A DNA stretch of 31,386 bases, from the NCBI RefSeq assembly GCF_000003605.2, contig NW_003110108.1:1-31386 (forward strand), written 5' to 3'. This document shows positions 1 through 31,386 of this stretch, one piece after another (positions within the stretch are counted from its first letter, which is position 1; each line of letters starts with the position of its first letter). The DNA comes from Saccoglossus kowalevskii (lineage: Eukaryota; Hemichordata; Enteropneusta; Harrimaniidae). The position numbers were made by a program, and so were the translations under genes. The notes under the pieces were generated by a model that ran no database searches, was not told the origin of the DNA, and worked only from the letters and a program-made list of their open reading frames with translations.

Positions 1-244
1 AGTTGTTCAAGTCATTGCAAAGTTTTGCAAAGTTATTTCAAAGTTGGTAGATGTATTTGCATAAATGACCTAAGTTGTTGGCTAGTAGAAACGCGCAGTT
101 GTAAAGTCGACAAGTTAAATAAAAGCCAGTTGAAAGTAGCTTATAGATGTTCACGTGAGTTGACTGTAAAATGTTAGAAAACAGCGTGCAAAGTTGGAAA
201 AAACGAAAGAAATGTTGGCGAAGTTGCTTGTATATATAACCTAA

Positions 245-258
245 GTCATTATCATGAC
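245..258. repeat. Short inverted repeat GTCAT-TATC-ATGAC
   Basis: Five-base arms and a four-base loop, present in most monomers just after TATATATAACCTAA. It is broken in the three B copies near 18,000, 18,935 and 19,870 (GTAATTATCATAAC) and removed by the deletions near 15,275 and 17,110. Confidence 0.5.
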
Positions 259-621
259 AACCCCGAAGTTAAATGTCGAAAACATTAAGTAAATGTTCCG
301 AGAATGCCTCATATATAAGCAAATTGTCACAACAGTCAACTGAAACGTCGACAACAAACTGCTTACAAAATAGTGAAAAGCGATTGAAAAGTTGGTAGTT
401 TCATTCGGGATTGTTACCTGTGATATCATATTAACAAGTCCCATAGTTAAAAGTTCGAACATGTGAATAAAGAATTCGTTAATTGATGTTAAATTACCGT
501 AGTCTTACTCCAAGTATGTAGATGTCATAGGTCAATTCTAGAAGATATTTGCGTTGGCGATATCGATTTTAAAACATCTCAAAACCTGAAATAGCCGCGA
601 ATTTGACCTAAATTCATGTTT

Positions 622-741
622 TCTATGCAGTTGTGTCATTAGGTGACCGATAAATGTTTGAGGTAAAGCGCAATTGGGCGTGGTTAGTACTTGCATGGGA
701 GACTGCCTGAGTAAACGAGCTGTTGAATTAATTTTTTTTTT
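622..741 (+). pseudogene. 5S rRNA-like element, copy 1 (A1), reference description
   Basis: The stretch starts at TCTATGCAG and ends in a T-run, about 110-120 bp, close to the usual 120 nt of 5S rRNA. Seen: TTGGGCGTGGTTAGTACTTG followed by CATGGGAGACTGCCTGAG, then AACGAGCTGTTGAA and Ts. From memory of the family, the animal form reads TCGGGC(C/G)TGGTTAGTACTTG, GATGGGAGACCGCCTGGG, then a CTGTAGGC or CTGTTGGC end, so the internal element and box C differ at only a few positions. GGTAAAGCGCAA stands where box A (AAGTTAAGCA-like) is expected and is degenerate. The 5' third aligns weakly, and the two ends can still form a partial helix I (GCAG with CTGT). This copy has GACTGCCTGAG, nearer to the canonical form than the GACTCCCTGAG of other A copies. 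It is likely a decayed 5S gene or a 5S-derived polymerase III unit. No canonical 5S copy exists in the window. Confidence 0.75.
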
Positions 742-940
742 GTTTCATCACAGACATGGAAAAGATATACGGCAACATTTCTGAATTTTTCTTCCTGTGA
801 TGTCAATCATTTATAGTATAAAATCGTGGCATTTTTGTAACTTTTTTAACTAATGGAAAGTTTCGAAATTCCTTCTAATTTTCAAGTACAAGTAGTTGAT
901 GCTGTGGGCACGTAGTGGGTTTTAAGTTGTTAACGCACCG

Positions 941-990
941 TGCAAAGTTGTTCAAAGTCACTGCAAAGTTGTGCAAAGTTATTGCAAAGT
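941..990 (+). repeat. 21-bp sub-repeat (about 2.4 copies), one set per monomer
   Basis: TGCAAAGTTGTTCAAAGTCAC is followed by TGCAAAGTTGTGCAAAGTTAT and then TGCAAAGTT, an internal 21-bp tandem repeat built from a 10-11 bp core (G/T)CAAAGT(T/C). It recurs about 940 bp later in each monomer, for example at 1,882 and 12,201. GCAAAGTTGG also recurs elsewhere in the monomer. The set near 7,515 has lost about one 21-bp copy. Confidence 0.85.
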
Positions 991-1096
991 TAGTAGGTGT
1001 ATTTGTATAAATGACCTAAGTTGTTGGCATATGGAAACGTGCAGTTGTAAAGTCGACAAATTTAATAAAAGCCATTTGAAAGCAGCTTATAGATGT

Positions 1097-1104
1097 TCAC
1101 GTGA
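1097..1104. promoter_or_regulatory. TCACGTGA palindrome (E-box-like), one per monomer
   Basis: A perfect 8-bp palindrome containing CACGTG, the core bound by bHLH-type factors in eukaryotes. It is kept in nearly every monomer of both families even though the base just upstream differs (GTTCACGTG in A, GGTCACGTG in B). Changed copies are at 17010-17017 (TTACGTGA), 27273-27280 (TCGCGTGA) and 31029-31036 (TTACGTGA). Function is not shown; it may only reflect shared descent. Confidence 0.4.
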
Positions 1105-1176
1105 GTTGACTGTAAAATGTTAGAAAACAGCGCGCAAAGTTGGAAAAAACGAAAGAAATGTTGGCGGAGTTGCTTG

Positions 1177-1185
1177 TATATATAA
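1177..1185 (+). promoter_or_regulatory. TATATATAA tract, one per monomer
   Basis: A TATA-box-like tract about 70 bp after TCACGTGA and preceding CCTAAGTCATT. It lies nearly 400 bp upstream of the 5S-like element, too far to be its own upstream TATA element. Length varies by dinucleotide steps (longest near 26,412). A second TATA-like tract, CATATATAAG, occurs about 75 bp further on in A1 and B copies and is CATATGTAAG in A2. Confidence 0.3.
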
Positions 1186-1567
1186 CCTAAGTCATTATCA
1201 TGACAACCCCGCAGTTAAATGTCGAAAATATTAAGTAAATGTTCCGAGAATGCCTCATATGTAAGCAGAATGTCACAACAGTCAACCAAAAAGTCGACTA
1301 CCAACTGCTTACAAAGTTGTGAAAAGCGATTGCAAAGTTGGTATTTTCATTTGGGATTGTTACCTGTGATATCATTTTAACAAGTCCCATAGTTAAAAGC
1401 TCGAAAATGTGAATAAATATTTCGTTAATTGATGTTAAATTACCGTAGTCTTACTCCAAGTATGTAGATGTCATAGGTCAATTCTAGAAGATATTTGCGT
1501 AGGCGATATCGATTTTAAAACATCTCAAAACCTGAAATAGCCGGGAATTCGGCCTAATTGCATGTTT

Positions 1568-1682
1568 TCTATGCAGTTGTGTGGTTAGGTGACCGATAAA
1601 TGTTTGAGGTAAAGTGCAATCGGGCGTGGTTAGTACTTGCATGGGAGACTCCCTGAGTAAACGAGCTGTTGAATTTTTTTTT
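1568..1682 (+). pseudogene. 5S rRNA-like element, copy 2 (A2)
   Basis: Box-C-like TGGTTAGTACTTGCATGG is intact. Box A region reads GGTAAAGTGCAA, one base from the usual A-family form. The terminal T-run has nine Ts. Confidence 0.72.
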
Positions 1683-2508
1683 GTTTCATCACAGACATAG
1701 AAAAGATATACTTCAACATTTCTGCATTTTTCTTCCTGTGATGTCAATCATTTATTGTAGAAAATCGTGGCATTTTTGTAACTTTTTTAACTAATGGAAA
1801 GTTTCGAAATTCCTTCTAATTTTCAAGTACAAGTTCTTGATGCTGTCGGCACGTAGTGGGTTTTAAGTTGTTAACGCACCGTGCAAAGTTGTTCAAAGTC
1901 ATTGCAAAGTTGTGCAAAGTTATTGCAAAGTTGGTAGATGTATTTGCATAAATGACCTAAGTTGTTGGCTTATAGAAACGCGCAGTTCTAAAGTCGACAA
2001 GTTTAATAAAAGCCATTTGAAAGCAGCTTATAGATGTTCACGTGAGTTGACTGTAAAATGTTAGAAAACAGCGTGCAAAGTTGGAAAAAACGAAAGAAAT
2101 GTTGGCGGAGTTGCTTGTATATATAACCTAAGTCATTATCATGACAACCCCGCAGTTAAATGTCGAAAATATTAAGTAAATGTTCCGAGAATGCCTCATA
2201 TGTAAGCAGATTGTCACAACAGTCAACCAAAAAGTCGACTACAAACTGCTTACAAAGTTGTGAAAAGCGATTGCAAAGTTGGTATTTTCATTTGGGATTG
2301 TTACCTGTGATATCATTTTAACAAGTCCCATAGTTGAAAGCTCGAAAATGTGAATAAATATTTCGTTAATTGATGTTAAATTATCGTAGTCTTACTCCAA
2401 GTATGTAGATGTCATAGGTCAATTCTAGAAGATATTTGCGTAGGCGATATCGATTTTAAAACATCTCAAAACCTGAAATAGCTTGGAATTCGGCCTAATT
2501 GCATGTTT

Positions 2509-2623
2509 TCTATGCGGTTGTGTGGTTAGGTGACCGATAAATGTTTGAGGTAAAGTGCAATCGGGCGTGGTTAGTACTTGCATGGGAGACTCACTGAGTA
2601 AACGAGGTGTTGAATTTTTTTTT
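2509..2623 (+). pseudogene. 5S rRNA-like element, copy 3 (A2)
   Basis: Private changes are TATGCGGTTG at the 5' end, GACTCACTGAG after box C, and CGAGGTGTTG instead of CGAGCTGTTG. The second half of box C is otherwise unchanged. Nine Ts follow. Confidence 0.7.
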
Positions 2624-3449
2624 GTTTCATCACAGACATAGAAAAGATATACTTCAACATTTCTGCATTTTTCTTCCTGTGATGTCAATCATTTATTGTA
2701 GAAAATCGTGGCATTTTTGTAACTTTTTTAACTAATGGAAAGTTTCGAAATTCCTTCTAATTTTCAAGTACAAGTTCTTGATGCTGTCGGCACGTAGTGG
2801 GTTTTAAGTTGTTAACGCACCGTGCAAAGTTGTTCAAAGTCTTTGCAAAGTTGTGCAAAGTTATTGCAAAGTTGGTAGATGTATTTGCATAAATGACCTA
2901 AGTTGTTGGCTTATAGAAACGCGCAGTTCTAAAGTCGACAAGTTTAATAAAAGCCATTTGAAAGCAGCTTATAGATGTTCACGTGAGTTGACTGTAAAAT
3001 GTTAGAAAACAGCGTGCAAAGTTGGAAAAAACGAAAGAAATGTTGGCGGAGTTGCTTGTATATGTAACCTAAGTCATTATCATGACAACCCCGCAGTTAA
3101 ATGTCGAAAATATTAAGTAAATGTTCCGAGAATGCCTCATATGTAAGCAGATTGTCACAACAGTCAACCAAAAAGTCGACTACAAACTGCTTACAAAGTT
3201 GTGAAAAGCGATTGCAAAGTTGGTATTTTCATTTGGGATTGTTACCTGTGATATCATATTAACAAGTCCCATAGTTAAAAGTTCGAAAATGTGAATTAAT
3301 ATTTCGTAAATTGATGTTAAATTACCGTAGTCTTACTCCAAGTATGTAGATGTCATAGGTCAATTCTAGAAGATATTTGCGGAGACGATATCGATTTTAA
3401 AACATCTCAAAACCTGAAATAGCCGAGTCTTCGGCCTAATTGCATGTTT

Positions 3450-3565
3450 TCTATGCAGTTGTGTGGTTAGGTGACCGATGAATGTTTGAGGTAAAGCGCA
3501 ATCGGGCGTGGTTAGTATTTGCATGGCAGACTCCCTGAGTAAACGAGCTGTTGAATTTTTTTTTT
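3450..3565 (+). pseudogene. 5S rRNA-like element, copy 4 (A2)
   Basis: Box C carries two substitutions, TAGTATTTG and CATGGCAGAC, so it is less canonical than neighbouring copies. Ten Ts follow. Confidence 0.7.
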
Positions 3566-4391
3566 GTTTCATCACAGACATGGAAAAGATATACTTCAAC
3601 ATTTCTGCATTTTTCTTCCTGTGATGTCAATCATTTATTGTAGAAAATCGTGGCATTTTTGTAACTTTTTTAACTAATGGAAAGTTTCGAAATTCCTTCT
3701 AATTTTCAAGTACAAGTTGTTGATGCTGTCGGCACATAGTGGGTTTTAAGTTGTTAACGCACCGTGCAAAGTTGTTCAAAGTCATTGCCAAGTTGTGCAA
3801 AGTTATTGCAAAGTTGGTAGATGTATTTGCATAAATGACCTAAGTTGTTGGCTTATAGAAACGCGCAGTTCTAAAGTCGACAAGTTTAATAAAAGCCATT
3901 TGAAAGCAGCTTATAGATGTTCACGTGAGTTGACTGTAAAATGTTAGAAAACAGCGTGCAAAGTTGGAAAAAACGAAAGAAATGTTGGCGGAGTTGCTTG
4001 TATATATAACCTAAGTCATTATCATGACAACCCCGCAGTTAAATGTCGAAAATATTAAGTAAATGTTCCGAGAATGCCTCATATGTAAGCAGATTGTCAC
4101 AACAGTCAACCAAAAAGTCGACTACAAACTGCTTACAAAGTTGTGAAAAGCGATTGCAAAGTTGGTATTTTCATTTGGGATTGTTACCTGTGATATCATT
4201 TTAACAAGTCCCATAGTTAAAAGCTCTAAAATGTGAATAAATATTTCGTTAAATGATGTTAAATTACCGTAGTCTTACTCCAAGTATGTAGATGTCATAG
4301 GTCAATTCTAGAAGATATTTGCGTAGGCGATATCGATTTTAAAACATCTCAAAACCTGAAATAGCCGGCAATTCAGCCTAATTGCATGTTT

Positions 4392-4507
4392 TCTATGCAG
4401 TTGTGTGGTTAGGTGACCGATAAATGTTTGAGGTAAAGCGCAATCGGGCGTGGTTAGTACTTGCATGGGAGACTCCCTGAGTAAACGAGCTGTTGAATTT
4501 TTTTTTT
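4392..4507 (+). pseudogene. 5S rRNA-like element, copy 5 (A2)
   Basis: Matches the A2 consensus across box A, internal element and box C. It is the last A copy before the switch to B sequence about 200 bp downstream. Confidence 0.72.
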
Positions 4508-4704
4508 GTTTCATCACAGACATGGAAAAGATATACTTCAACATTTCTGCATTTTTCTTCCTGTGATGTCAATCATTTATTGTAGAAAATCGTGGCATTT
4601 TTGTAACTTTTTTAACGAATGGAAAGTTTCGAAATTCCTTCTAATTTTCAAGTACAAGTTGTTGATGCTGTCGGCACGTAGTGGGTTTTAAGTTGTTAAC
4701 GCAC

Positions 4705-4835
4705 CGTGCAAATTGGTCAAAGTCATTGTAAGTGTGCAAAGTTATTGCAAAGGTGTAGATGTACTTGTATAATGACCTAAGTGTTGGCTTATAGAACGCG
4801 CAGTTGTAAAGTCGACAAGTTTATTAAAAGCCAGT
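4705..4835 (+). other. Cluster of one-base deletions at first A2-to-B switch
   Basis: Compared with any neighbour, several short homopolymers or doublets lose bases: AAATTGGTCAAAG, CATTGTAAGTGTGC, GCAAAGGTGTAG, TATAATGACC, CTAAGTGTTGG and ATAGAACGCGC. Such density is not seen inside the blocks. Confidence 0.75.
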
Positions 4836-5329
4836 GAAAGCAGCTTATAGATGGTCACGTGAGTTGACTGTAAAATATTAGAAAATAGCGTGCAAAGTTG
4901 TAAAAAACGAAAGAAATGTTGGCGGAGTTGCTTGTATATATATAACCTAAGTCATTTATCATGACAACCCCGCAGTTAAATGTCTAAAACATTAAGTAAA
5001 TATTCCGTGAATGCCTCATATATAACCAGATTATCACAACAGTCACCGAAAAGTCGACAACAAACTGCTTTACAAAGTTATGAAAAGCGATTTCAAAGTT
5101 TGGTAGTTTCATTCGGGATTGTTACCTGTGATATCATATTAACAAGTCCCGTGGTTAAAAGTTTGAACATGTGAATTAATATTTCGTAAATTGATGTTAA
5201 ATTACCGTAGTCTTACTCCAAGTATGTAGATGTCATAGGTCAATTCTAGAAGATACTTGTGTAAACAATATCGATTTTAAAACATCCCAAAACCTGAAAT
5301 AGCCTCTAATTCTGCTTAATTTCAAATGA

Positions 5330-5445
5330 TCTATGACGTTGTGTGGTTAGGTGACCGATAAATATTTAAAGTAAAGCACAATAAGGCGTGGTTAGTACTT
5401 GCATGGGAGACTCCCCGAGTAAACGAGCTGTTGAATTTTTTTTTT
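5330..5445 (+). pseudogene. 5S rRNA-like element, copy 6 (B-like)
   Basis: The first B-type element. AAGTAAAGCACAA is nearer to a canonical box A (AAGTTAAGCA) than the A-family form. Private changes are TATGACGTTG at the 5' end and ATAAGGCGTGG replacing ATCGGGCGTGG in the internal element. Confidence 0.7.
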
Positions 5446-6267
5446 CATTACAAACATGGAAAAGATATTCGGCAACATTTCTGTATTTTTTCTTCCTGCG
5501 ATGTCAAACATTTATAGCAGAAAATCGTGGCATTTTTGTAACTTTTTGAACTAAAGAAAAGTTTCGAAATTCCTTCTAATTTTCAAGTACAAGTTGTTGA
5601 TGCTGTCGGCACGCAGTGGGTTTTAAGTTGTTAACGCACCGTGCAAAATTGTTCAAAGTCATTGCAAAGTTGTGCAAAGTTATTGCAAAGTTTGTAGATG
5701 TACTTGCATAAATGGCCTAAGTTGTTGGCTTATAGAAACGCGCAGTTGTAAAGTCGACAAGTTTAATAAAAGCCAGTTGAAAGCAGCTTTTAGAAGTTCA
5801 CGTGAGTTGACTGTAAAATGATAGAAAACAGCGTGCAAAGTTGGAAAAAACGAAAGAAATGTTAGCGGAGTTGCTTGTATATATAACCTAAGTCATTATC
5901 ATAACAACCCCGCAGGTAAATGTATAAAACATTAAGTAAATATTCCGAGAATGCCTCATATATAACCAGATTATCACAACAGTCACCGAAAAGTCGACAA
6001 CAAACTGCTTACAAATTTGTGAAAAGCGATTGCAAAGTTGGTAGTTTCAATCGAGATTGTTACCTACGATATCATATTAATAAGTCCCATAGTTAAAAGT
6101 TCGAGCATGTGAATAAATATTTCGTAAATTGATGTTAAATTAGCGTAGTCTTACTCCAAGTATGTAGAGGTCATAGGTCAATTCTTGAAGATACTTGTGT
6201 AAACGATATCAATTTTAAAACATCCCAAAACCTGAAATAGCCTCGAATTCGGAATGATTTCAAATGA

Positions 6268-6382
6268 TCTATGCAGTTGTGTGGTTTGGTGACCGATAAA
6301 TGTTTAAAGTAAAGCACAATCGGGCGTGGTTAGTACTTGCACGGGAGACTCCCCGAGCAAACGAGGTGTTGAATTTTTTTTT
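6268..6382 (+). pseudogene. 5S rRNA-like element, copy 7 (B-like)
   Basis: Internal element is intact. Box C has CACGGGAGAC, followed by CCCCGAGCAAACGAGGTG. The start region has GGTTTGGTGACC. Confidence 0.7.
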
Positions 6383-7200
6383 CATTACAAACATGGAAAA
6401 GATATACGGCAACAATTCTGCATTTTTTCTTCCTGTGATGTCAAACATTTATAGCAGAAAATCGTGGCATTTTTGTAACTTTTTGAACTAAAGAAAAGTT
6501 TTGAAATTTCTTCTAATTTTCAAGTACAAGTTGTTGATGCTGTCGGCACGCAGTGGGTTTTAAGTTGTTAACGCACCGTGCAAAGTTGTTCAAAGTCATT
6601 GCAAAGTTGTGCAAAGTTATTGCAAAGTTGGTAGATGTATTTGCATAAATGACCTAACTTGTTGGCTTATAGAAACGCGCAGTTGTAAAGTCGACAAATT
6701 TAATAAAAGCCAGTTCAAAGCAGCTTATAGATGTTCACGTGAGTTGACTGTAAAATTTTAGAAAACAGCGTGCAAAGTTGGAAAAAACGAAAGAAATGTT
6801 GGCGGAGTTGCTTGTATATATAACCTAAGTCATTATCATGACAACCCCGAAGTTAAATGTCGAAAACATTAAGTAAATGTTCCGAGAATGCCTCATATAT
6901 AAGCAAATTGTCACAACAGTCAACCGAAACGTCGACAACAAACTGCTTACAAAGTTGTGAAAAGCGATTGCAAAGTTGGTAGTTTCATTCGGGATTGTTA
7001 CCTGTGATATCATATTAACAAGTCCCATAGATAAAAGCTCGAAAATGTGAATAAAGATTTCGTTAATTGATGTTAAATTACCGTAGTCTTACTCCAAGTA
7101 TGTGGATGTCATAGGTCAATTCTAGAAGATATTTGCGTAGGTTTTAAAATAAACATCTCAAAACCTGAAATAGCCGCGAATTCGGCCTAATTTCATGTTT

Positions 7201-7319
7201 TCTATGCAGTTGTGTCGTTAGGTGACCGATAAATGTTTGAGGTAAAGCGCAATCGGGCGTGGTTAGTACTTGCATGGGAGACTCCCTGAGTAAACGAGCT
7301 GTTGAATTGTTTTTTTTTT
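7201..7319 (+). pseudogene. 5S rRNA-like element, copy 8 (A1)
   Basis: Intact ATCGGGCGTGGTTAGTACTT and CATGGGAGAC. The tail is GAATTG followed by nine Ts. Upstream, the usual CGATATCGAT is partly lost near 7,140. Confidence 0.72.
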
Positions 7320-8121
7320 CATCACAGACATGGACAAAATATACGGCAATATTTCTGTATTTTTCTTCCTGTGATGTCAATCATTTATAGTATAAAATCG
7401 TGGCATTTTTGTAACTTTTTTAACTAATGGAAAGTTTCGAAATTCCTTCTAATTTTCAAGTACAAGTTGTTGATTCTGTCGGCACGTAGTGGGTTTTAAG
7501 TTGTTAACGCACCGTGTTAAAGTTGTGCAAAGTTATTGCAAAGTTGGTAGATGTATTTGCATAAATGACCTAAGTTGTTGGCTTATAGAAACGCGCAGTT
7601 CTAAAGTCGACAAGTTTAATAAAAGCCATTTGAAAGCAGCTTATAGATGTTCACGTGAGTTGACTGTAAAATGTTAGAAAACAGCGTGCAAAGTTGGAAA
7701 AAACGAAAGAAATGTTGGCGGAGTTGCTTGTATATATAACCTAAGTCATTATCATGACAACCCCGCAGTTAAATGTCGAAAATATTAAGTAAATGATCCG
7801 AGAATGCCTCATATGTAAGCAGATTGTCACAATAGTCAACCAAAAAGTCGACTACAAACTGCTTACAAAGTTGTGAAAAGCGATTGCAAAGTTGGTATTT
7901 TCATTCGGGATTGTTACCTGTGATATCATATTAACAAGTCCCATAGTTAAAAGTTCGAAAATGTGAATAAAGATTTCGTTAATTGATGTTAATTTACCGT
8001 AGTCTTACTCCAAGTATGTAGATGTCATAGGTCAATTCTAGAAGATATTTGCGTAGACGATATCGATTTTAAAACATCTCAAAACCTGAAATAGCCGGGA
8101 ATTCGGCCTAATTGCATGTTT

Positions 8122-8236
8122 TCTATGCAGTTGTGTGGTTAGGTGACTGATGGATGTTTGAGGTAAAGCGCAATCGGGCGTGGTTAGTATTTGCATGGGA
8201 GACTCCCTGAGTAAACGAGCTGTTGAATTTTTTTTT
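8122..8236 (+). pseudogene. 5S rRNA-like element, copy 9 (A2)
   Basis: Box C has TAGTATTTG. The 5' third has GGTGACTGATGGATG instead of GGTGACCGATAAATG. Nine Ts follow. Confidence 0.7.
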
Positions 8237-9062
8237 GTTTCATCACAGGCATGGAAAAGATATACTTCAACATTTCTGCATTTTTCTTCCTGTGATGTCA
8301 ATCATTTATTGTAGAAAATCGTGGCATTTTTGTAACTTTTTTAACTAATGGAAAGTTTCGAAATTCCTTCTAATTTTCAAGTACAAGTTGTTGATGCTGT
8401 CGGTACGTAGTGGGTTTTAAGTTGTTAACGCACCGTGCAAAGTTGTTCAAAGTCATTGCAAAGTTGTGCAAAGTTATTGCAAAGCTGGTAGATGTATTTG
8501 CATAAATGACCTAAGTTGTTGGCTTATAGAAACGCGCAGTTCTAAAGTCGACAAGTTTAATAAAAGCCATTTGAAAGCAGCTTATAGATGTTCACGTGAG
8601 TTGACTGTAAAATGTTAGAAAACAGCGTGCAAAGTTGGAAAAAACGAAAGAAATGTTGGCGGAGTTGCTTGTATATATAACCTAAGTCATTATCATGACA
8701 ACCCCGCAGTTAAATGTCGAAAATATTAAGTAAATGTTCGGAGAATGCCTCATATGTAAGCAGATTGTCACAACAGTCAACCAAAAAGTCGACTACAAAC
8801 TGCTTACAAAGTTGTGAAAAGCGATTGCAAAGTTGGTATTTTCATTTGGGATTGTTACCTGTGATATCATTTTAACAAGTCCCATAGTTAAAAGCTCGAA
8901 AATGTGAATAAAGATTTCGTTAATTGATGTTAAATTACCGTAGTCTTACTCCAAGTATGTAGATGTCATAGGTCAATTCTAGAAGATATTTGCGTAGACG
9001 ATATCGATTTTAAAACATCTCAAAACCTGAAATAGCCGGGAATTCGGCCTAATTGCATGTTT

Positions 9063-9177
9063 TCTATGCAGTTGTGTGGTTAGGTGACCGATGAATGTTT
9101 GAGGTAAAGCGCAATCGGGCGTGGTTAGTATTTGCATGGGAGACTCCCTGAGTAAACGAGCTGAAGAATTTTTTTTT
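9063..9177 (+). pseudogene. 5S rRNA-like element, copy 10 (A2)
   Basis: Carries TAGTATTTG in box C, and the 3' end reads CTGAAGAA rather than CTGTTGAA, which weakens helix-I pairing at the terminus. Confidence 0.7.
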
Positions 9178-10004
9178 GTTTCATCACAGACATGGAAAAG
9201 ATATACTTCAACATTTCTGCTTTTTTCTTCCTGTGATGTCAATCATTTATTGTAGAAAATCGTGGCATTTTTGTAACTTTTTTTAACTAATGGAAAGTTT
9301 CGAAATTCCTTCTAATTTTCAAGTACAAGTTGTTGATGCTGTCGGCACGTAGTGGGTTTTAAGTTGTTAACGCACCGTGCAAAGTTGTTCAAAGTCATTG
9401 CCAAGTTGTGCAAAGTTATTGCAAAGTTGGTAGATATATTTGCATAAATGACCTAAGATGTTGGCTTATAGAAACGCGCAGTTCTAAAGTCGACAAGTTT
9501 AATAAAAGCCATTTGAAAGCAGCTTATAGATGTTCACGTGAGTTGACTGTAAAATGTTAGAAAACATCGTGCAAAGTTGGAAAAAACGAAAGAAATGTTG
9601 GCGGAGTTGCTTGTATATATAACCTAAGTCATTATCATGACAACCCCGCAGTTAAATGTCGAAAATATTAAGTAAATGTTCGGAGAATGCCTCATATGTA
9701 AGCAGATTGTCACAACAGTCAACCAAAAAGTCGACTACAAACTGCTTACAAAGTTGTGAAAAGCGATTGCAAAGTTGGTATTTTCATTTGGGATTGTTAC
9801 CTGTGATATCATTTTAACAAGTCCCATAGTTAAAAGCTCGAAAATGTGAATAAAGATTTCGTTAATTGATGTTAAATTACCGTAGTCTTACTCCAAGTAT
9901 GTAGATGTCATAGGTCAATTCTAGAAGATATTTGCGTAGACGATATCGATTTTAAAACATCTCAAAACCTGAAATAGCCGGGAATTCGGCCTAATTGCAT
10001 GTTT

Positions 10005-10120
10005 TCTATGCAGTTGTGTGGTTAGGTGACCGATGAATGTTTGAGGTAAAGCGCAATCGGGCGTGGTTAGTATTTGCATGGGAGACTCCCTGAGTAAACG
10101 AGCTGATGAATTTTTTTTTT
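10005..10120 (+). pseudogene. 5S rRNA-like element, copy 11 (A2)
   Basis: Shares TAGTATTTG with copy 10. The 3' end reads CTGATGAA, intermediate between copy 10 and the consensus. Ten Ts follow. Confidence 0.7.
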
Positions 10121-20242: not shown

Positions 20243-20358
20243 TCTATGCAGTTGTGTGGTTAGGTGACCGATAAATGTTTAAAGTAAAGCACAATTGGGC
20301 GTGGTTAGTACTTGCATGGGAGACTCCCCGAGTAAACGAGCTGTTGAATTTTTTTTTT
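20243..20358 (+). pseudogene. 5S rRNA-like element, copy 22 (B)
   Basis: B consensus except ATTGGGCGTGG in the internal element, shared with copies 1 and 23. Ten Ts follow. Confidence 0.7.
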
Positions 20359-21295: not shown

Positions 21296-22117
21296 CATTA
21301 CAAACATGGAAAAGATATTCGGCAACATTTCTGCATTTTTTCTTCCTGTGATGTCAAACATTTATAGCAGAAAATCGTGTAATTTTTATAACTTTTCGAA
21401 CTAAAGAAAAGTTTCGCAATTGCTTCTAATTTTCAAGTACAAGTTGTTGATGCTGTCGGCACGTAGTGGGATTTATGTTGTTAACGCACCGTGCAAAATT
21501 GTTCAAAGTCATTGCAAAGTTGTGCAAAGTTATTGCAAAGTTTGTAGATGTACTTGTATAAATGACCTAAGTTGTTGGCTTATAGAAACGCGCAGTTGTA
21601 AAGTCGACAAGTTTATTAAAAGCCAGTTGAAAGCAGCTTATAGATGGTCACGTGAGTTGACTGTAAAATATTAGAAAATAGCGTGCAAAGTTGTAAAAAA
21701 CGAAAGAAATGTTGGCGGAGTTGCTTGTATATATAACCTAAGTCATTATCATGACAACCCCGCAGTTAAATGTCTAAAACATTCAGTAAATATACCGAGA
21801 ATGCCTCATATATAACCAGATTATCACAACAGTCTCCGAAAAGTCGACAACAAACTGCTTACAAAGTTGTGAAAAGCGATTTCAAAATTGGTAGTATCAT
21901 TCGGGATTGTTACCTGTGATATCATATTAACAAGTCCCATGGTTAAAAGTTCGAACATGTGAATAAATATATCGTAAATTGATGTTAAATTACCGTAGTC
22001 TTACTCCAAGTATGCAGAGGTCATAGGTCAATTCTAGAAGATACTTGTGTAAACAATATCGATTTTAAAACATCACAAAACCTGAAATAGCCTCTAATTC
22101 TGCTTAACTTCAAATGA

Positions 22118-22234
22118 TCTATGCAGTTGTGTGGCTAGGTGACCGATAAATGTTTAAAGTAAAGCACAATCGGGCGTGGTTAGTACTTGCATGGGAGACT
22201 CCCCGAGTAAACGAGCTGTTGATTTTTTTTTTTT
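22118..22234 (+). pseudogene. 5S rRNA-like element, copy 24 (B)
   Basis: Intact internal element and box C. GGCTAGGTGACC lies in the 5' third, and the tail is GTTGA followed by twelve Ts, the longest run in the window. Confidence 0.7.
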
Positions 22235-23059
22235 CATTACAAACATGGAAAAGATATTCGGCAACATTTCTGCATTTTTTCTTCCTGCCATGTCAAACAT
22301 TTATAGCAGAAAATCGTGGCATTTTTGTAACTTTTTGAACTAAAGAAAAGTTTCGAAATTCCTTCTAATTTTCAAGTACAAGTTGTTGATGCTGTCGGCA
22401 CGCAGTGGGTTTTAAGTTGTTAACGCACCGTACAAAATTGTTCAAAGTCATTGCAAAGTTGTGCAAAGTTATTGCAAAGTTTGTAGATGTACTTGTATAA
22501 ATGACCTAAGTTGTTGGCTTATAGAAACGCGCAGTTGTAAAGTCGACAAGTTTATTAAAAGCCAGTTGAAAGCAGCTTATAGATGGTCACGTGAGTTGAC
22601 TGTAAAATATTAGAAAATAGCGTGCAAAGTTGTAAAAAAACGAAAGAAATGTTGGCGGAGTTGCTTGTATATATATAACCTAAGTCATTATCATGACAAC
22701 CCCGCAGTTAAATGTCTAAAACATTGAGTAAATATTCCGAGAATGCCTCATATATAACCAGATTATCACAACAGTCACCGAAAAGTCGACAACAAACTGC
22801 TTACAAAGTTATGAAAAGCGATTTCAAAGTTGGTAGTTTCATTCGGGATTGTTACCTGTGATATCATATTAACAAGTCCCGTGGTTAAAAGTTTGAACAT
22901 GTGAATAAATATATCGTAAATTGATGTTAAATTACCGTAGTCTTACTCCAAGTATGCAGAGGTCATAGGTCAATTCTAGAAGATACTTGTGTAAACAATA
23001 TCGATTTTAAAACATCCCAAAACCTGAAATAGCCTCTAATTCTGCTTAATTTCAAATGA

Positions 23060-23164
23060 TCTATGCAGTTGTGTGGTTAGGTGACCGATAAATGTTTAAA
23101 GTAAAGCACAATCGTACTTGCATGGGAGACTCCCCGAGTAAACGAGCTGTTGAATTTTTTTTTT
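23060..23164 (+). pseudogene. 5S rRNA-like element, copy 25 (B), 11-bp deletion in control region
   Basis: The sequence jumps from CACAATCG straight to TACTTGCATGG, losing GGCGTGGTTAG, that is the internal element and the first part of box C. This copy should not bind TFIIIA normally. It explains most of the short 929-bp period here. Confidence 0.7.
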
Positions 23165-23988
23165 CATTACAAACATGGAAAAGATATTTGGCAACATTTC
23201 TGCATTTTTTCTTCCTGCGATGTCAAACATTTATAGCAGAAAATCGTGGCATTTTTGTAACTTTTTGAACTAAAGAAAAGTTTCGAAATTCCTTCTAATT
23301 TTCAAGTACAAGTTGTTGATGCTGTCGGTACGCAGTGGGTTTTAAGTTGTTAACGCACCATGCAAAATTGTTCAAAGTCATTGCAAAGTTGTGCAAAGTT
23401 ATTGCAAAGTTTGTAGATGTACTTGTATAAATGACCTAAGTTGTTGGCTTATAGAAACGCGCAGTTGTAAAGTCGACAAGTTTATTAAAAGCCAGTTGAA
23501 AGCAGCTTATAGATGGTCACGTGAGTTGACTGTAAAATATTAGAAAATAGCGTGCAAAGTTGTAAAAAACGAAAGAAATGTTGGCGGAGTTGCTTGTATA
23601 TATATAACCTAAGTCATTATCATAACAACCCCGCAGTAAAATTTCGAAAACATTAAGTAAATGTTCCGAGAATGCCTCATATATAAGCAGATTATCACAA
23701 CAGCCACCGGGAAGTCGACAACAAACTGCTTACAAAGTTGTGAAAAGCGATTTCAAAGTTGGTAGTTTCATTCGGGATTGTTACCTGTGATATCATATTA
23801 ACAAGCCCCATGGTTAAAAGTTCGAACATGTGAATAAATATATCGTAAATTGATGTTAAATTACCGTAGTCTTACTCCAAGTATGCAGAGGTCATAGGTC
23901 AATTCTAGAAGATACTTGTGTAAACGATATCGATTTTAAAACATCCCAAAACCTGAAATAGCCTCGAATTATGCTTAATTTCAAATGA

Positions 23989-24103
23989 TCTATGCAGTTG
24001 TGTGGTTAGGTGACCGATAAATGTTTAAAGTAAAGCACAATCGGGCGTGGTTAGTACTTGCAGGGAGACTCCCCGAGTAAACGAGATGTTGAATTTGTTT
24101 TTT
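23989..24103 (+). pseudogene. 5S rRNA-like element, copy 26 (B)
   Basis: Two bases are missing in box C (CTTGCAGGGAG), as in copies 17 and 30. CGAGATGTTG is at the 3' end, and the T-run is broken by a G (TTTG then six Ts). Confidence 0.67.
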
Positions 24104-24927
24104 CATTACAAACATGGAAAAGATATTCGGCAACATTTCTGCATTTTTACTTCCTGTGATGTCAAACACTTATAGCAGAAACTCGTGGCATTTTTGTAAC
24201 TTTTTGAACTAAAGAAAAGTTTCGCAATTGCTTCTAATTTTCAAGTACAAGTTGTTGATGCTGTCGGCACGTACTGGGTTTTATGTTGTTAACGCGGCGT
24301 GCAAAATTGTTCAAAGTCATTGCAAAGTTGTGCAAAGTTATTGCAACGTTTGTAGATGTACTTGTATAAATGACATAAGTTGTTGGCTTATAGAAACGCG
24401 CAGTTGTAAAGTCGACATGTTTATTAAAAACAAGTTGAAAGCAGCTTATAGATGGTCACGTGAGTTGACAGTAAAATATTAGAAAATAGCGTGCAAAGTT
24501 GTAAAAAACGAAAGAAATGTTGGTTGAGTTGCTTGTATATATGTAACCTAAGTCATTATCATGACAACCCCGCAGTTAAATGTATAAAACATTAAGTAAA
24601 TGTTCCGTGAATGCCTCATATATAACCAGATTATCACAACAGTCACCGGAAAGTCGACAACAAACTGCTTACAAAGTTGTGAAAAACGATTTCAAAGTTG
24701 GTAGTTTCATTCGGGATTGTTACCTGTGATATCATATTAACAAGTCCCATGGTTAAAAGTTCGAACATGTGAATAAATATATCGTAAATTGATGTTAAAT
24801 TACCGTAGTCTTACTCCAAGTATGCAGAGGTCATAGGTAAATTCTAGAAGATACTTGTGTAAACGATATCGATTTTAAAACATCCCAAAACCTGAAATAG
24901 CCTCGAATTGTGCTTAATTTCAAATGA

Positions 24928-25042
24928 TCTATGCAGTTGTGTGGTTAGGTGACCGATAAATGTTTGAAGTAAAGCACAATCGGGCGTCGTTAGTACTTGC
25001 ATGGGAGACTCCCCGAGTAAACGAGTTGTTGAATTTTTTTTT
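24928..25042 (+). pseudogene. 5S rRNA-like element, copy 27 (B)
   Basis: A GCGTCGTTAG change hits the start of box C. The start region carries TTTGAAGTAAAG, a mix of A and B alleles. Confidence 0.68.
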
Positions 25043-25865
25043 CATTACAAACATGGAAAAGATATTCGGCAACATTTCTGCATTTTTTCTTCTTGTGATG
25101 GCAAACATTTATAGCACAAAATCGTGGCATTTTTGTAACTTGTTTAACTAAAGAAAAGTTTCGAAATTCCTTCTAATTTTCAAGTACAAGTTGTTGATGA
25201 TGTCGGTACGCAGTGGATTTTATGTTGTTAACGCACCGTGCAAAGTTGTTCAAAGTCATTGCAAGGTTGTGCAAAGTTATTGCAAAGTTGTTAGATGTAT
25301 TTGCATAAATGACCTAAGTTGTTGGCTTGTAGAAACGCGCAGTTGTAAAGTCGACAAGTTTATTAAAAGCCAATTGAAAGCAGCTTATAGATGTTCACGT
25401 GAGTTGACTGTAAAATGTTAGAAAACAGCGAGCAAAGTTGTAAAACACGAAAGAAATGTTGGCGGAGTTGCTTGTATAAATAACCTAAGTCATTATCGTA
25501 ACAACCCCGCAGTAAAATTTCGAAAACATTAAATAAATGTTCCGAGAATGCCTCATATATAAGCAGATTATCACAACAGTCACCGGGAAAGTCGACAACA
25601 AACTGCTTACAAAGTTGTGAAAAGCGATTTCAAAGTTGGTAGTATCATTCGGGATTTTTACCTGTGATATCATATTAACAAGTCCCATGGTTAAAAGTTC
25701 GAACATGTGAATACATATATAGTAAATTGATGTTAAATTACCGTAGTCTTACTCCAAGTCTGCAGAGGTCATAGGTCAATTCTAGAAGATACTTGTGTAA
25801 ACGATATCGATTTTAAAACATCCCAAAACCTGAAATAGCCTCGAATTCTGCTTAATTTCAAATTA

Positions 25866-25981
25866 TCTATGCAGTTGTGTGGTTAGGTGACCGATAAATG
25901 TTTAAAGTAAAGCTCAATCGGGCGTGGTTAGTACTTGCATGGGAGACTCCCCGAGTAAACGAGCTGTTGAATTTTTTTTTT
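25866..25981 (+). pseudogene. 5S rRNA-like element, copy 28 (B)
   Basis: Box C is intact; GTAAAGCTCAATC lies in the box A region. Downstream flank reads TATTACAAAC. The ORF at 25898-26359 begins inside this copy and runs on because a later TAA became CGA; it is not called a gene. Confidence 0.7.
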
Positions 25982-26805
25982 ATTACAAACATGGAAAAGA
26001 TTGTCGGCAACATTTCTGCATTTTTTCTTCCTGTGATGTCAAACATTTATAGCAGAAAATCGTGGCATTTTTGTAACTTTTTGAACGAAAGAAAAGTTTC
26101 GCAATTGCTTCTAATTTTCAAATACAAGTTGTTGATGCTGTCGGCAGGTAGTGGGTTTTATGTTGTTAACGCATCGTGCAAAATTGTACAAATTCATTGC
26201 AAAATTGTGCAAAGTTATTGCAAAGTTTGTAGATGCACTTGCATAAATGACCTAAGTTGTTGGCTTATAGAAACGCGCAGTTGTAAAGTCGACAAGTTTA
26301 ATAAAAGCCAATTGAAAGCAGCGTATATATGGTCACGTGAGTTGACTGTAAAATATTAGGGAACAGCGTGCAAAGTTGTAAAAACGCAATAAATGTTGGC
26401 GGAGTTGCTTGTATATATATATAACCTAAGTCATTATCATGACAACCCCACAGTTAAATGTCAAAAACATTAAGTAAATATTCCGAGAATGCCTCATATA
26501 TAACCAGATTATCACAACAGTCACCGAAAAGTCGACAACAAACTGCTTACAAAGTTATGAAAAGCGATTTCAAAGTTGGTAGTTTCTTTCGGGATTGTTA
26601 CCTGTGATATCATATTAACAAGTCCCGTGGTTAAAAGTTTGAACATGTGAATAAATATATCGTAAATTGATGTTAAATTACCGTAGTCTTACTCCAAGTA
26701 CGCATAGGTCATAGGTCAATTCTAGAAGATACTTGTGTAAAACAATATCGATTTTAAACATCCCAAAACCTGTAATAGCCTCTAATTCTGCCTAATTTCA
26801 AATGA

Positions 26806-26921
26806 TCTATGCAGTTATGTGGGTAGGTGACCGATAAATGTTTAAAGTAATGCACAATCGGGCGTGGTTAGTAATTGCATGGGAGACTCCCCGAGTAAAC
26901 TAGCAGTTGATTTTGTTTTTT
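26806..26921 (+). pseudogene. 5S rRNA-like element, copy 29 (B)
   Basis: Several private changes: GTGGGTAGGTG, AGTAATGCACAA, TAGTAATTGC, ACTAGCAGTTG and a T-run broken by G. It is one of the most eroded copies. Confidence 0.65.
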
Positions 26922-27742
26922 CATTACAACATGGAAAAGATATTCGGCAACATTTCTGCATTTTTACTTCCTGTTATGTCAAACACTTATAGCAGAAACT
27001 CGTGGCATTTTTATAACTTTTTGAACTAAAGAAAAGTTTCGCAATTCCTTCTAATTTTCAAGTACAAGTTGTTGATGCTGTCGGCACGTAGTGGGTTTTA
27101 TGTTGTTAACGCGGCGTGCAAAATTGCTCAAAGTCATTGCAAAGTTGTGCAAAGTTATTGCAAAGTTTGTAGATGTACTTGTATAAATGACCTGAGTTGT
27201 TGGCTTATAGAAACGCGCAGTTGTAAAGTCGACAAGTTTATTAAAAGCCAGTTGAAATCAGCTTATAGATGGTCGCGTGAGTTGACTGTAAAATATTAGA
27301 AACTAGCGAGCAAAGTTGTAAAACACGAAAGAAATGTTGGCAGAGTTGCTTGTATATATAACCTAAGTCATTGTCATAACAACCTGGCAGTAAAATTTTG
27401 AAAACATTAAATAAATGTTCCGAGAATGCCTCATATATAACCAGATTATCACAACAGTCACCGGAAAGTCGACAACAAACTGCTTACAAAGTTGTGAAAA
27501 ACGATTTCAAAGTTGGTAGTTTCAATCGGGATTGTTACCTGTGATATCATATTAACAAGTCCCGTGGTTAAAAGTTCGAACATGTGAATAAATATAGCGT
27601 AAATTGATGTTAAATTACCGTAGTCTTACTCCAAGTATGCAGAGGTCATAGGTCAATTCTAGAAGATACTTGTGTAAACGATATCGATTTTAAAACATCC
27701 CAAAACCTGAAATAGCCTCGAATTCTGCTTAATTTAAAATGA

Positions 27743-27856
27743 TCTATGCAGTTGTGTGGTTAGGTGACCGATAAATGTTTAAAGTAAAGCACAATCGGGG
27801 GTGGTTAGTACTTGCAGGGAGACTCCCCGAGTAAACGAGCTGTTGAATTTTTTTTT
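27743..27856 (+). pseudogene. 5S rRNA-like element, copy 30 (B)
   Basis: The internal element has ATCGGGGGTGG and box C has CTTGCAGGGAG. It is the last B copy of the long B block. Confidence 0.67.
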
Positions 27857-28679
27857 CATTACAAACATGGAAAAGATATTCGGCAACATTTCTGCATTTT
27901 TACTTCCTGTTATGTAAAACACTTATAGCAGAAACTCGTGGCATTTTTATAACTTTTTGAACTAAAGAAAAGTTTCGCAATTCCTTCTAATTTTCAAGTA
28001 CAAGTTGTTGATGCTGTCGGCACGTAGTGGGTTTTATGTTGTTAACGCGGCGTGCAAAATTGCTCAAAGTCATTGCAAAGTTTTGCAAAGTTATTGCAAA
28101 GTTTGTAGATGTACTTGTATAAATGACCTGAGTTGTTGGCTTATAGAAACGCGCAGTTGTAAAGTCGACAAATTTAATAAAAGCCAGTTGAAAGCAGCTT
28201 ATAGATGTTCACGTGAGTTGACTGTAAAATGTTAGAAAACAGTGTGCAAAGTTGGAAAAAACGAAAGAAATGTTGGCGGAGTTGCTTGTATATATAACCT
28301 AAGTCATTATCATGACAACCCCGAAGTTAAATGTCGAAAACATTAAGTAAATGTTCTGAGAATGCCTCATTTATAAGCAAATTGTCACAACAGTCAACCG
28401 AAACGTCGACAACAAACTGCTTACAAAGTTGTGAAAAGCGATTGCAAAGTTGGTAGTTTCATTCGGGATTGTTACCTGTGATATCATATTAACAAGTCAC
28501 ATAGTTAAAAGTTCGAAAATGTGAATAAAGATTTCGTTAATTGATGTTAAATTACCGTAGTCTTACTCCAAGTATGTAGATGTCATAGGTCAATTCTAGA
28601 AAATATTTGCGTAGGTGATATCGATTTTAAAACATCTCAAAACCTGAAATAGCCGGGAATTCGGCCTAATTTCATGTTT

Positions 28680-28795
28680 TCTATGCAGTTGTGTGGTTAG
28701 ATGACCGATAAATGTTTAAAGTAAAGCGCAATCGGGCGTGGTTAGTACTTGCATGGGAGACTCCCTGAGTAAACGAGCTGTTGAATTGTTTTTTT
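28680..28795 (+). pseudogene. 5S rRNA-like element, copy 31 (A1/B hybrid)
   Basis: TTTAAAGTAAAG (B) is joined to CGCAATCGGGCG and CCCTGAGTAAACG (A) within the same element. It sits at the B-to-A boundary, so an exchange point lies inside or beside it. GTTAGATGACC is private. Confidence 0.7.
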
Positions 28796-29619
28796 GTTTC
28801 ATCACAGACATGGAAAAAATATACGGCAACATTTCTGCATTTTTCTTCCTGTGATGTCAATCATTTATAGTATAAAATCGTGGCATTTTTGTAACTTTTT
28901 TTACTAATGGAAAGTTTCGAAATTCCTTCTAACTTTCAAGTACAAGTTGTTGATGCTGTCGGCACGTAGTGGGTTTTAAGTTGTTAACGCACCGTGCAAA
29001 GTTGTTCAAAGTCATTGAAAGTTGTGCAAAGTTATTGCAAAGTTGGTAGATGTATTTGCATAAATGACTAAGTTGTTGGCTTATAGAAACGCGCAGTTGT
29101 AAAGTCGACACATTTAATAAAAGCCAGTTCAAAGCAGCTTTTAGATGTTCACGTGAGTTGACTGTAAAATTTTAGAAAACAGCGTGCAAAGTTGGAAAAA
29201 ACGAAAGAAATGTTGGCGGAGTTGCTTGTATATATAACCTAAGTCATTATCATGACAACCCCGAAGTTAAATGTCGAAAACATTAAGTAAATGTTCCGAG
29301 AATGCCTCATATATAAGCAAATTGTCACAACAGTCAACCGAAACGTCGACAACAAACTGCTTACAAAGTTGTGAAAAGCGATTGCAAAGTTGGTAGTTTC
29401 ATTCGGGATTGTTACCTGTGATATCATTTTAACAAGTCCCATAGTTATAAGCTCGAAAATGTGAATAAAGATTTCGTTAATTGATGTTAAATTACTGTAG
29501 TCTTACTCCAAGTATGTGGATGTCATAGGTCAATTCTAGAAGATATTTACGTAGGCGATATCGATTTTAAAACATCTCAAAACCTGAAATAGCCGGGAAT
29601 TCGGCCTAATTGCATGTTT

Positions 29620-29734
29620 TCTATGCAGTTGTGTGGTTAGGTGACCGATAAATGTTTGACGTAAAGCGCAATCGGGCGTGGTTAGTACTTGCATGGGAGA
29701 CTCCCTGAGTAAACGAGCTGTTAATTTTTTTTTT
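29620..29734 (+). pseudogene. 5S rRNA-like element, copy 32 (A1/A2 hybrid)
   Basis: Reads GACGTAAAGCGCAA in the box A region and CTGTTAATT at the 3' end. It lies between A1-type sequence upstream (CCCCGAAG at about 29,261) and an A2 allele (ACTTCAACG) just downstream. Confidence 0.7.
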
Positions 29735-30558
29735 GTTTCATCACAGACATGGAAAAGATATACTTCAACGTTTCTGCATTTTTCTTCCTGTGATGTCAAT
29801 CATTTATAGTATATAATCGTGGCATTTTTGTAACTTTTTTAACTAATGGAAAGTTTCGAAATTCCTTCTAATTTTCAAGCACAAGTTGTTGATGCTGTCG
29901 GCACGTGGTGGGTTTTAAGTTGTTAACGCACTGTGCAAAGTTGTTCAAAGTCATTGAAAGTTGTGCAAAGTTATTGCAAAGTTGGTAGATGTATTTGCAT
30001 AAATGACCTAAGTTGTTGGCTTATTGAAACGCGCAGTTGTAAAGTCGACAAATTTAATAAAAGCCAGTTGAAAGCAGCTTATAGATGTTCACGTGAGTTG
30101 ACTGTAAAATGTTAGAAAACAGGTGCAAAGTTGGAAAAAACGAAAGAAATGTTGGCGGAGTTGCTTGTATATATAACCTAAGTCATTATCATGACAACCC
30201 CGCAGTTAAATGTCGAAAATATTAAGTAAATGTTCCGAGAATGCTTCATATGTAAGCAGATTGTCACAACAGTCAACCAAAAAGTCGACTACAAACTGCT
30301 TACAAAGTTGTGAAAAGCGATTGCAAAGTTCGTATGTTCATTTGGGATTGTTACCTGTGATATCATTTTAACAAGTCCCATAGTTAAAAGCTCGAAAATG
30401 TGAATAAATATTTCGTTAATTGATGTTAAATTACCGTAGTCTTACTCCAAGTATGTAGATGTCATAGGTCAATTCTAGAAGATATTTGCGTAGGCGATAT
30501 CGATTTTAAAACATCTCAAAACCTGAAATAGCCGGGAATTCGGCCTAATTGCATGTTT

Positions 30559-30674
30559 TCTATGCAGTTGTGTGGTTAGGTGACCAATAAATGTTTGAGG
30601 TAAAGCGCAATCGGGCGTGGTTAGTACTTGCATGGGAGACTCCCTGAGTAAACGAGCTGTTGAATTTTGTTTTT
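30559..30674 (+). pseudogene. 5S rRNA-like element, copy 33 (A2)
   Basis: Intact internal element and box C; GGTGACCAATAAATG lies in the 5' third. The T-run is broken by G (four Ts, G, five Ts). Last 5S-like copy in the window. Confidence 0.7.
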
Positions 30675-31386
30675 GTTTCATCACAGACATGGAAAAGATA
30701 TACTTCAACATTTCTGCATTTTTCTTCCTGTGATGTCAATCATTTATTGTAGAAAATCGTGGCATTTTTGTAACTTTTTTAACTAATGGATAGTTTCGAA
30801 ATTCCTTCTAATTTTCAAGTACAAGTTGTTGATGCTGTCGGCACGTAATGGGTTTTAAGTTGTTAACGCACCGTGCAAAGTTGTTCAAAGTCATTGAAAG
30901 TTGTGCAAAGTTATTGCAAAGTTGGTAGATGTATTTGCATAAATGACCTAAGTTGTTGGCTTATAGAAACGCGCAGTTGTAAAGTCGACACATTTAATAA
31001 AAGCCAGTTCAAAGCAGCTTTTAGATGTTTACGTGAGTTGACTGTAAAATTTTAGAAAACAGCGTGCAAAGTTGGAAAAAACGAAAGAAATGTTGGCGGA
31101 GTTGCTTGTATATATAACCTAAGTCATTATCATGACAACCCCGAAGTTAAATGTCGAAAAACATTAAGTAAAATGTTCCGAGAATGCCTCATATATAAGC
31201 AAATTGTCACAACAGTCAACCGAAACGTCGACAACAAACTGCTTACAAAGTTGTGAAAAAGCGATTGCAAAGTTGGTAGTTTCATTCGGGATTGTTACCT
31301 GTGATATCATATTAACAAGTCCCCATAAAATAAAAGCTCGAAAATGTGAATAAAAGATTTCGTTTAATTGATGTTAATTTACCGTA

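What the first reader, a model, noticed from the sequence alone, without database searches (positions are those of the whole stretch)
1..31386. 5S rRNA-derived satellite with a long (~940 bp) monomer
Seen: each of 33 monomers has a 5S-like stretch of about 110 bp with near-canonical internal element and box C and a terminal T-run, but none is a canonical 5S gene. Known: 5S-derived tandem satellites and 5S pseudogene clusters have been described in some animals, and 5S genes themselves are normally tandem. Inference: this is a former 5S gene cluster that drifted as a unit, or a satellite that captured a 5S gene and amplified it. A whole array sharing the same non-canonical changes implies that decay came before, or spread with, homogenisation.
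Basis: partly seen in the sequence, partly recalled or inferred. Interest (0 to 1): 0.7.

Follow-up and report, generated by a model that had tools for sequence, protein, structure and literature searches.

The report
Satellite array carrying a 5S-gene fragment
This is a long tandem repeat in an animal-like genome that picked up a piece of the 5S ribosomal RNA gene, including most of its internal promoter, and it is one of at least three such 5S-bearing repeat families in that genome; the kind is known, the composite build is unusual.

Summary
The whole contig is one head-to-tail satellite array (unit about 940 bp, 33 copies of the 5S-like stretch, all on the + strand). The host genome is held (572 Mb), and its real 5S genes give the decisive comparison. 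Consensus monomer positions 680-709 are 30/30 identical to host 5S positions 62-91 (internal element, first part of box C). Identity falls to 8/14 upstream and 11/22 downstream, and 5S 1-47 is not detectable. So the 5S homology is real but covers about 66-74 nt, not 110. The unit body matches neither type of canonical 5S spacer; it is three diverged ~175-nt blocks plus a 5S-bearing block. That favours a satellite that captured a 5S fragment over a 5S cluster that drifted whole. The 21-nt core occurs 3,597 times in the genome, in at least three satellite families (216, 728, ~940 bp) besides the genes. Within the window the 5S part is no better conserved than the rest. In seven independently sampled diverged copies it changes more slowly (7% against 17%), but window-rank support is modest (3-12%). 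5S-derived satellites are already known; this is a composite variant. Transcription and TFIIIA binding are untested.

The parts
1..31386 (+). satellite array, ~940-bp unit, 33 copies of the 5S-like stretch, both ends cut by the contig
1..940 (+). monomer M00, haplotype A'
   Evidence: 51 diagnostic columns
941..4706 (+). block of A monomers M01-M04
4707..6578 (+). two B monomers (M05-M06; M06 is an A/B mosaic)
6579..7514 (+). monomer M07, haplotype A'
7515..15026 (+). block of A monomers M08-M15
15027..28052 (+). block of B monomers M16-M29 (M27 mosaic)
28053..31386 (+). A and A' monomers M30-M33 (M30 mosaic with B; M33 partial, without the 5S part)
11261..12201 (+). example monomer M12 (type A)
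11261..11312 (+). 21-nt CAAAGTT subrepeats; AAAGTTG motif (up to one mismatch) 15 forward against 3 reverse in the unit consensus
11283..11820 (+). three paralogous ~175-nt blocks b1, b2, b3 of the body (approximate; B-consensus positions 23-200, 191-375, 366-560)
   Evidence: b1/b2 112/186 identical, score 59 against maximum of 300 shuffles 43; b2/b3 86/137, 53 against 48; b1/b3 28/33, 46 against 41
11926..11993 (+). 5S-derived segment of M12 (5S positions 48 to about 115)
11940..11969 (+). 30-nt core in M12, identical to host 5S positions 62-91 (internal element and start of box C)
11994..12002 (+). T-run (9 T) directly after the 5S-derived segment in M12, Pol III terminator-like
   Evidence: at least 5 T in 33 of 33 copies
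7202..7310 (+). only 5S covariance-model match of the window at E<=5 (23.9 bits, below gathering)

Best explanation
A composite satellite DNA. An older repeat of about 175 nt formed the body as three blocks, now diverged (shown). A block holding the 3' part of a 5S gene with its terminator joined it (joining is inferred from structure). The flanks of the 5S piece had largely decayed before the unit was amplified, and changes are shared between the ~940-bp and 728-bp families (shown). The unit then spread to a few thousand copies. It is homogenised locally by unequal exchange and conversion, which leaves blocks of A, A' and B monomers with mosaic monomers among them (the blocks and mosaics are shown, the process is inferred). 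The 5S piece is not expected to make 5S rRNA. It is mostly a passenger, though its box A, internal element and box C part may have been kept longer than the rest because the Pol III factors TFIIIA and TFIIIC can still bind it (inferred, weak).
For: Host 5S genes: 47 scored matches, 105-113 bits, in three contigs. Monomer A 680-709 is 30/30 to 5S 62-91; blastn with 7-base words at E<=0.01 finds only the 5S core shared between monomer and the canonical units. A run of 30 matches among 66 sites with 17 mismatches arises in 27 of 400000 random placements. Three paralogous blocks (lags 171-178 and 349). Related build in a 728-bp family at 68% identity and in a diverged locus. A/A'/B blocks and mosaics M06, M27, M30. 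Copy counts: body 25-mer with <=3 mismatches 2399, control 0; second body 25-mer exact 1186, control 0. 5S helix pairs 67:108 and 68:107 are broken in the ~940-bp, 728-bp and C6 copies alike.
Against: The body could be a very old 5S spacer too diverged to recognise, since spacers evolve fast. The junctions of the captured piece were not found: the 5' limit near position 48 is where similarity fades, not a mapped breakpoint. No outgroup genome was available, so the order of events is inferred. b1/b3 and b2/b3 exceed the shuffle maximum only narrowly (46 against 41, 53 against 48). For a pure passenger, the 30/30 core and the slower change of positions 48-91 in seven independent copies are awkward.
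Confidence: 0.68

Rival explanations
1. A former 5S rDNA cluster (gene plus its own spacer) that lost function and drifted as a unit; the body is the old spacer.
For: A 5S-derived part with a T-run in the place of the 5S terminator, in tandem, with a unit length (940) near those of the host's 5S units (1139, 1579). The host already has two spacer types, read, so spacers turn over.
Against: No spacer similarity beyond the core. The body consists of repeated ~175-nt blocks shared with a 728-bp family. The first 47 nt of the gene are undetectable in the A and B consensus.
Confidence: 0.17
2. A tandemised remnant of a Pol III-promoted mobile element (a SINE3, or an Ajax/Cassandra-like TRIM) whose 5S-derived promoter was kept by selection for transcription before the element formed arrays.
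For: The promoter side is kept while the upstream 5S is lost, as described for Ajax and SINE3 (PMC10886601, section 3.7) and as a ~70-bp core in Cassandra (PMC10853983 passages). Positions 48-91 change more slowly in seven body-sampled copies. Copies also occur singly or in pairs in larger contigs (C6, C203, C257, C594, C829).
Against: A run of at least 5 T lies within 40 nt after the promoter in 33 of 33 window copies, 4-10 T in 7 of 7 diverged ones, and would stop Pol III before the body. Most listed copies lie in arrays, and the two large-contig loci read closely, C6 and C203, are short decayed arrays. One monomer searched for repeats showed no terminal repeats. PBS, PPT and target-site duplications were not tested.
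Confidence: 0.12
3. A functional array transcribed by Pol III into a short 5S-like RNA.
For: Box A/IE/box C part and T-run are present in order.
Against: Helix pairs 67:108 and 68:107 broken and the 5' half missing. No extra conservation within the window: core 22/976 against 731/29834 elsewhere, p 0.83. Cores change in other arrays: three of seven body-sampled copies have 3 changes in 30.
Confidence: 0.03

Closest known systems
5SHindIII-DNA satellite of the fish Hoplias malabaricus (passages of PMC2713275; the primary paper was seen only as a reference entry)
   Same: tandem satellite with a partial, 95-bp 5S-like segment; derived from 5S rDNA
   Different: 360-bp unit whose remaining 265 bp resemble the true 5S spacer; mapped to centromeres. 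Here the body is unlike the host's 5S spacers and the location is unknown
PcP190 satellite of frogs (passages of PMC11675491)
   Same: 5S-derived region about 70% like the gene, with a second unrelated region; several sequence types
   Different: about 190-bp unit with a 120-bp 5S-like region, with evidence of transcription. It is closer to the 216-bp family found here (119 of 216 bp 5S-like) than to the window's family
Ajax TRIM of nemerteans (PMC10886601: outline with abstract, passages, section 3.7) and Cassandra (PMC10853983 passages)
   Same: keep the 5S promoter part (box A, IE, box C); Ajax with diverged upstream sequence
   Different: LTR retrotransposons with primer-binding sites and, for Ajax, target-site duplications; this is an array with a T-run after the promoter
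5'-deleted 5S pseudogenes of Tribolium freemani (passages of PMC11202950)
   Same: 5S copies lacking the start of the gene in a satellite-rich setting
   Different: 30-bp deletions, in arrays that also hold full-length 5S genes

Membership tests
5S-derived satellite DNA | tandem head-to-tail array of a non-coding unit | tested here: met
   33 copies at ~940 bp, one strand
5S-derived satellite DNA | part of the unit homologous to the host's 5S gene | tested here: met
   30/30 core, and positions 48-113 alignable to the host's own 5S
5S-derived satellite DNA | remaining part derived from a 5S spacer (as in 5SHindIII; not in every member) | tested here: not met
   no spacer similarity to either canonical unit type, blastn word 7
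functional 5S rRNA gene | full-length covariance-model match above gathering score | tested here: not met
   0 in the window; best 23.9 bits against 38; host genes 105-113 bits
functional 5S rRNA gene | 5S helices intact | tested here: not met
   of 10 pairs with both ends at or after position 48, 67:108 and 68:107 are broken in A, B, 728 and C6, 70:105 also in A and B; 5' half missing
SINE3 / Ajax / Cassandra elements | Pol III promoter region of 5S retained | tested here: met
   positions 62-91 30/30; 48-61 only 8/14
SINE3 / Ajax / Cassandra elements | dispersed insertions with target-site duplications | tested here: inconclusive
   most listed copies are in arrays, a few lie singly in larger contigs; duplications not tested
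Ajax / Cassandra (TRIM) | LTRs with primer-binding site and polypurine tract | not tested
   no search for these was made
Pol III transcription unit | transcript from the 5S-like segment | not testable with these tools
   no RNA data held

The most novel reading that the evidence does not exclude
The satellites keep a working TFIIIA/TFIIIC landing site under long-term constraint, and their core has been brought back into step with the host's 5S promoter after the flanks had diverged, a satellite counterpart of the promoter mirroring described for Cassandra. Supporting signs: core 30/30 to the host while the flank keeps the Rfam-consensus state at position 107, unpaired with the host-type G at 68; the box A equivalent (48-61) differs from the host yet changes by only 6% against 17% elsewhere in seven diverged copies. 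That box A conservation argues for constraint of the satellite's own promoter rather than plain overwriting by the gene.
Probability: 0.15. Interest if true: 0.75.

Novelty: new variant of a known kind. Interest (0 to 1): 0.42.

Why it matters
One genome holds two canonical 5S array types and at least three 5S-bearing satellite families at different stages of decay (216 bp with a nearly whole gene; 728 and ~940 bp with a promoter-side fragment). That makes it possible to test how a gene becomes a satellite, whether internal Pol III promoters help satellites persist, and whether 5S annotation and FISH probes are confounded by thousands of look-alike copies. If the core is under constraint, it would point to a role of Pol III factors in heterochromatic repeats.

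Tried and rejected
Rfam at gathering score: 0 matches. The SpR08 sRNA match (27.7 bits, gathering 80) equals the 5S match in E-value; rejected as chance and used as a warning on the covariance evidence. tRNA-like origin: ARAGORN 0 genes. Coding content: 46 ORFs of 60-153 aa scattered through the repeats; no protein family search was made. Two exact patterns in viral contigs, one degenerate pattern in prokaryote contigs and a plasmid blastn: 0 matches. Monomer letters in papers: 0 papers for 6 strings. The whole monomer as a genome query had too many candidates to be scored.

Strong core constraint, first look: 28 copies in contigs chosen for an exact core gave core 4.4% against 16.5% overall, the lowest 30-nt window lying one base off the core. 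I rejected this as biased by how the copies were found. 22 copies sampled by the body from six contigs (some overlapping in C203) gave 5.2% against 8.4%, 22% of windows as low. Seven other body-sampled contigs gave 15/210 = 7.1% against 855/4857 = 17.6%. With the second alignment their rest was 17.1-17.2%, and 2.9%, 2.8% and 4.2% of windows were as low as 62-91, 48-97 and 48-113. With one copy of each of 13 loci these ranks were 8.3%, 5.5% and 1.9%. Pairwise among the seven they were 12% (62-91) and 6.6% (48-97). I report it as suggestive only.

An inverted copy of 5S 35-47 upstream of the fragment: of 10 tests one had p 0.004 (inverted) and one 0.035 (direct), both in the same C6 copy; not pursued. 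One search compared the 216-bp spacer with a wrong file that a later script had overwritten; repeated correctly. An earlier count said 44 hits in L043; the output shows 42, of which 41 reach the gathering score. My note numbers a helix pair 7,112; one search shows 7:113.
Full report
Observation. The window is contig C482 of a 572,110,611-bp genome in 4,830 contigs. It is one tandem array on the + strand with 33 copies of the box-C-like anchor. Cut at a fixed point, it gives monomers M00-M33, of 884-943 bp except the last, which is partial. G+C is 35% and CpG observed/expected of the consensus is 1.05-1.07, so CpG decay is not visible. A and B monomers are 89-92% identical to each other, 94-99% within A (M33 left out) and 92-98% within B. 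51 diagnostic columns show a third type, A' (M00, M07, M30, M31, M33), and mosaics M06, M27 and M30. Blocks with mosaics are what unequal exchange and conversion leave.

How much of it is 5S. No copy reaches Rfam's gathering score. One of 33 appears at E<=5 (23.9 bits), and an unrelated bacterial model does as well. Direct alignment with five recalled animal 5S genes places consensus A 666-738 on 5S 48-121, 55/74 identical with the best reference, score 69 against shuffles 21.0+-2.8, maximum 35 of 300. 5S 1-48 is not found in A or B (0 of 20 tests at p<0.05).

The host's own 5S. The whole-genome search scored 47 of 18,217 first-look candidates and found full-length genes of 105-113 bits in three contigs: C3485 with ~1139-bp units, C2212 and C3801 with ~1579-bp units. 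At position 82 all five recalled animal genes have G, while the host gene and the satellite have C. Monomer A 680-709 is 30/30 to host 5S 62-91. Positions 48-61 and 92-113 match 8/14 and 11/22 for A, 8/14 and 10/22 for B. A run of 30 among 66 sites arose in 27 of 400,000 random placements of the 17 mismatches of A, and in 16 of 400,000 for the 18 of B. With recalled references instead of the host the clustering was weaker (p 0.01-0.24). blastn with 7-base words finds nothing shared with either spacer type at E<=0.01 outside the core (one search shows only E 4.4 matches besides).

Build of the unit. The body holds three paralogous blocks of about 175 nt: b1/b2 112/186 identical (score 59, shuffle maximum 43), b2/b3 86/137 (53 against 48), b1/b3 28/33 over a short stretch (46 against 41). 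The 5S-bearing block is unlike them: scores 25, 31 and 32, all within the shuffles. The start of the unit holds 21-nt CAAAGTT subrepeats.

Other families in the genome. The exact 21-mer of the core occurs 2,116 + 1,481 = 3,597 times, 0 for the reversed control; only about the first 100 places were listed, in contig order. From these: a 216-bp family on C111, C242 and C404 with a 119-nt 5S-like part, 109 of 118 host positions identical, 42 covariance matches in L043 of which 41 reach gathering. A 728-bp family on C115, 68% identical to this one. More ~940-bp arrays on C324, C389 and C124. Short decayed arrays lie in the large contigs C6 and C203. The 728-bp family and the C6 locus give no 5S covariance match at E<=0.5, but carry the core at 29/30 and the same broken pairs 67:108 and 68:107. 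Both were found through the exact core, so their 29/30 is biased. A body 25-mer with up to three mismatches occurs 2,399 times, about 2.3 Mb of ~940-bp units.

Is the promoter part under constraint? Within the window it is not: core 22/976 changed against 731/29,834 elsewhere, p 0.83; A/B fixed differences 4/67 in the 3' part against 60/832 in the rest, and half of all windows of that length have as few. Contigs C113 and C322, found by the body, are absent from the listed exact-core places, and their sampled copies have 3 of 30 core changes each. Seven body-sampled copies from seven contigs show 15/210 in the core against 855/4857 in the rest, lower in 7 of 7. By segment: 48-61 6%, 62-91 7%, 92-113 19%. 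Only 2.9% of windows are as low when measured against the window's B consensus, but 12% when measured pairwise. The best-conserved body stretch includes the search anchor. 22 body-sampled copies from less diverged arrays: 5.2% against 8.4%, 22% of windows as low. Verdict: suggestive of past or weak constraint, not shown.

A small sign about history. In the host, pair 68:107 is G-C, in the Rfam consensus c-g. The satellites have G at 68, the host state, and G at 107, the consensus state. One reading is that the core was brought into step with the host gene later than the flank; another is two independent changes. It is a single pair and cannot decide.

Mechanism. Shown: tandem arrays, local blocks, mosaics, shared flank changes across families. 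Inferred: capture of a 5S fragment with its terminator by a ~175-nt satellite, amplification of the composite, little or no function now. A Pol III transcript would be expected to start near the lost 5' end and stop at the T-run (established knowledge of 5S genes), so it would not cover the body; this speaks against a SINE- or TRIM-type life cycle for the present unit.

Comparison with print. 5S-derived satellites are known in a fish (PMC2713275, passages) and in frogs (PMC11675491, passages), and one in Plantago was seen as a reference entry only. Elements that keep the 5S promoter part are Ajax (PMC10886601: outline with abstract, passages and section 3.7) and Cassandra (PMC10853983, passages). 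I found no description of this unit: six monomer strings gave 0 papers, and the listings showed nothing that I recognised as it. The host was not identified, so a published description under a species name cannot be excluded.

Noticed in passing
L043 (C111), L045 (C242), L046 (C404): A 216-bp satellite with a nearly full-length 5S part (109 of 118 host positions) in which helix I pair 7:113 is T-A instead of the host's G-C, in 96 of 103 monomers. It may derive from a variant 5S gene that was once functional. Within it the 5S part is not clearly more conserved than the spacer (5.9% against 8.5%, 33 of 216 circular shifts as extreme).
   Followed up: partly
L043, L046: Some 5S-like copies of the 216-bp family lie 117-118 bp apart, i.e. 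joined without spacer.
   Followed up: no
C3485 against C2212 and C3801: The host has two canonical 5S array types with different spacers (units about 1139 and 1579 bp) and slightly different gene 3' ends.
   Followed up: partly
L047 (C6): Very diverged short array with two 5S cores 503 bp apart that keeps a more gene-like box A (AAGTTAAGCT) than the ~940-bp family.
   Followed up: partly
window 1-31386: AAAGTTG motif (up to one mismatch) is strand-biased (15 forward, 3 reverse per unit; shuffle mean 5). The 11 copies in the first 430 bp keep a 10.5-10.6-bp phase (R 0.68-0.82, no significance computed, subrepeats included), which might matter for DNA bending or nucleosomes.
   Followed up: no
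upstream of the fragment in the second copy of L047: 13-nt stretch matching the reverse complement of 5S 35-47 at 12 of 13 (p 0.004, one of 10 tests); possibly an old inversion, possibly chance.
   Followed up: no
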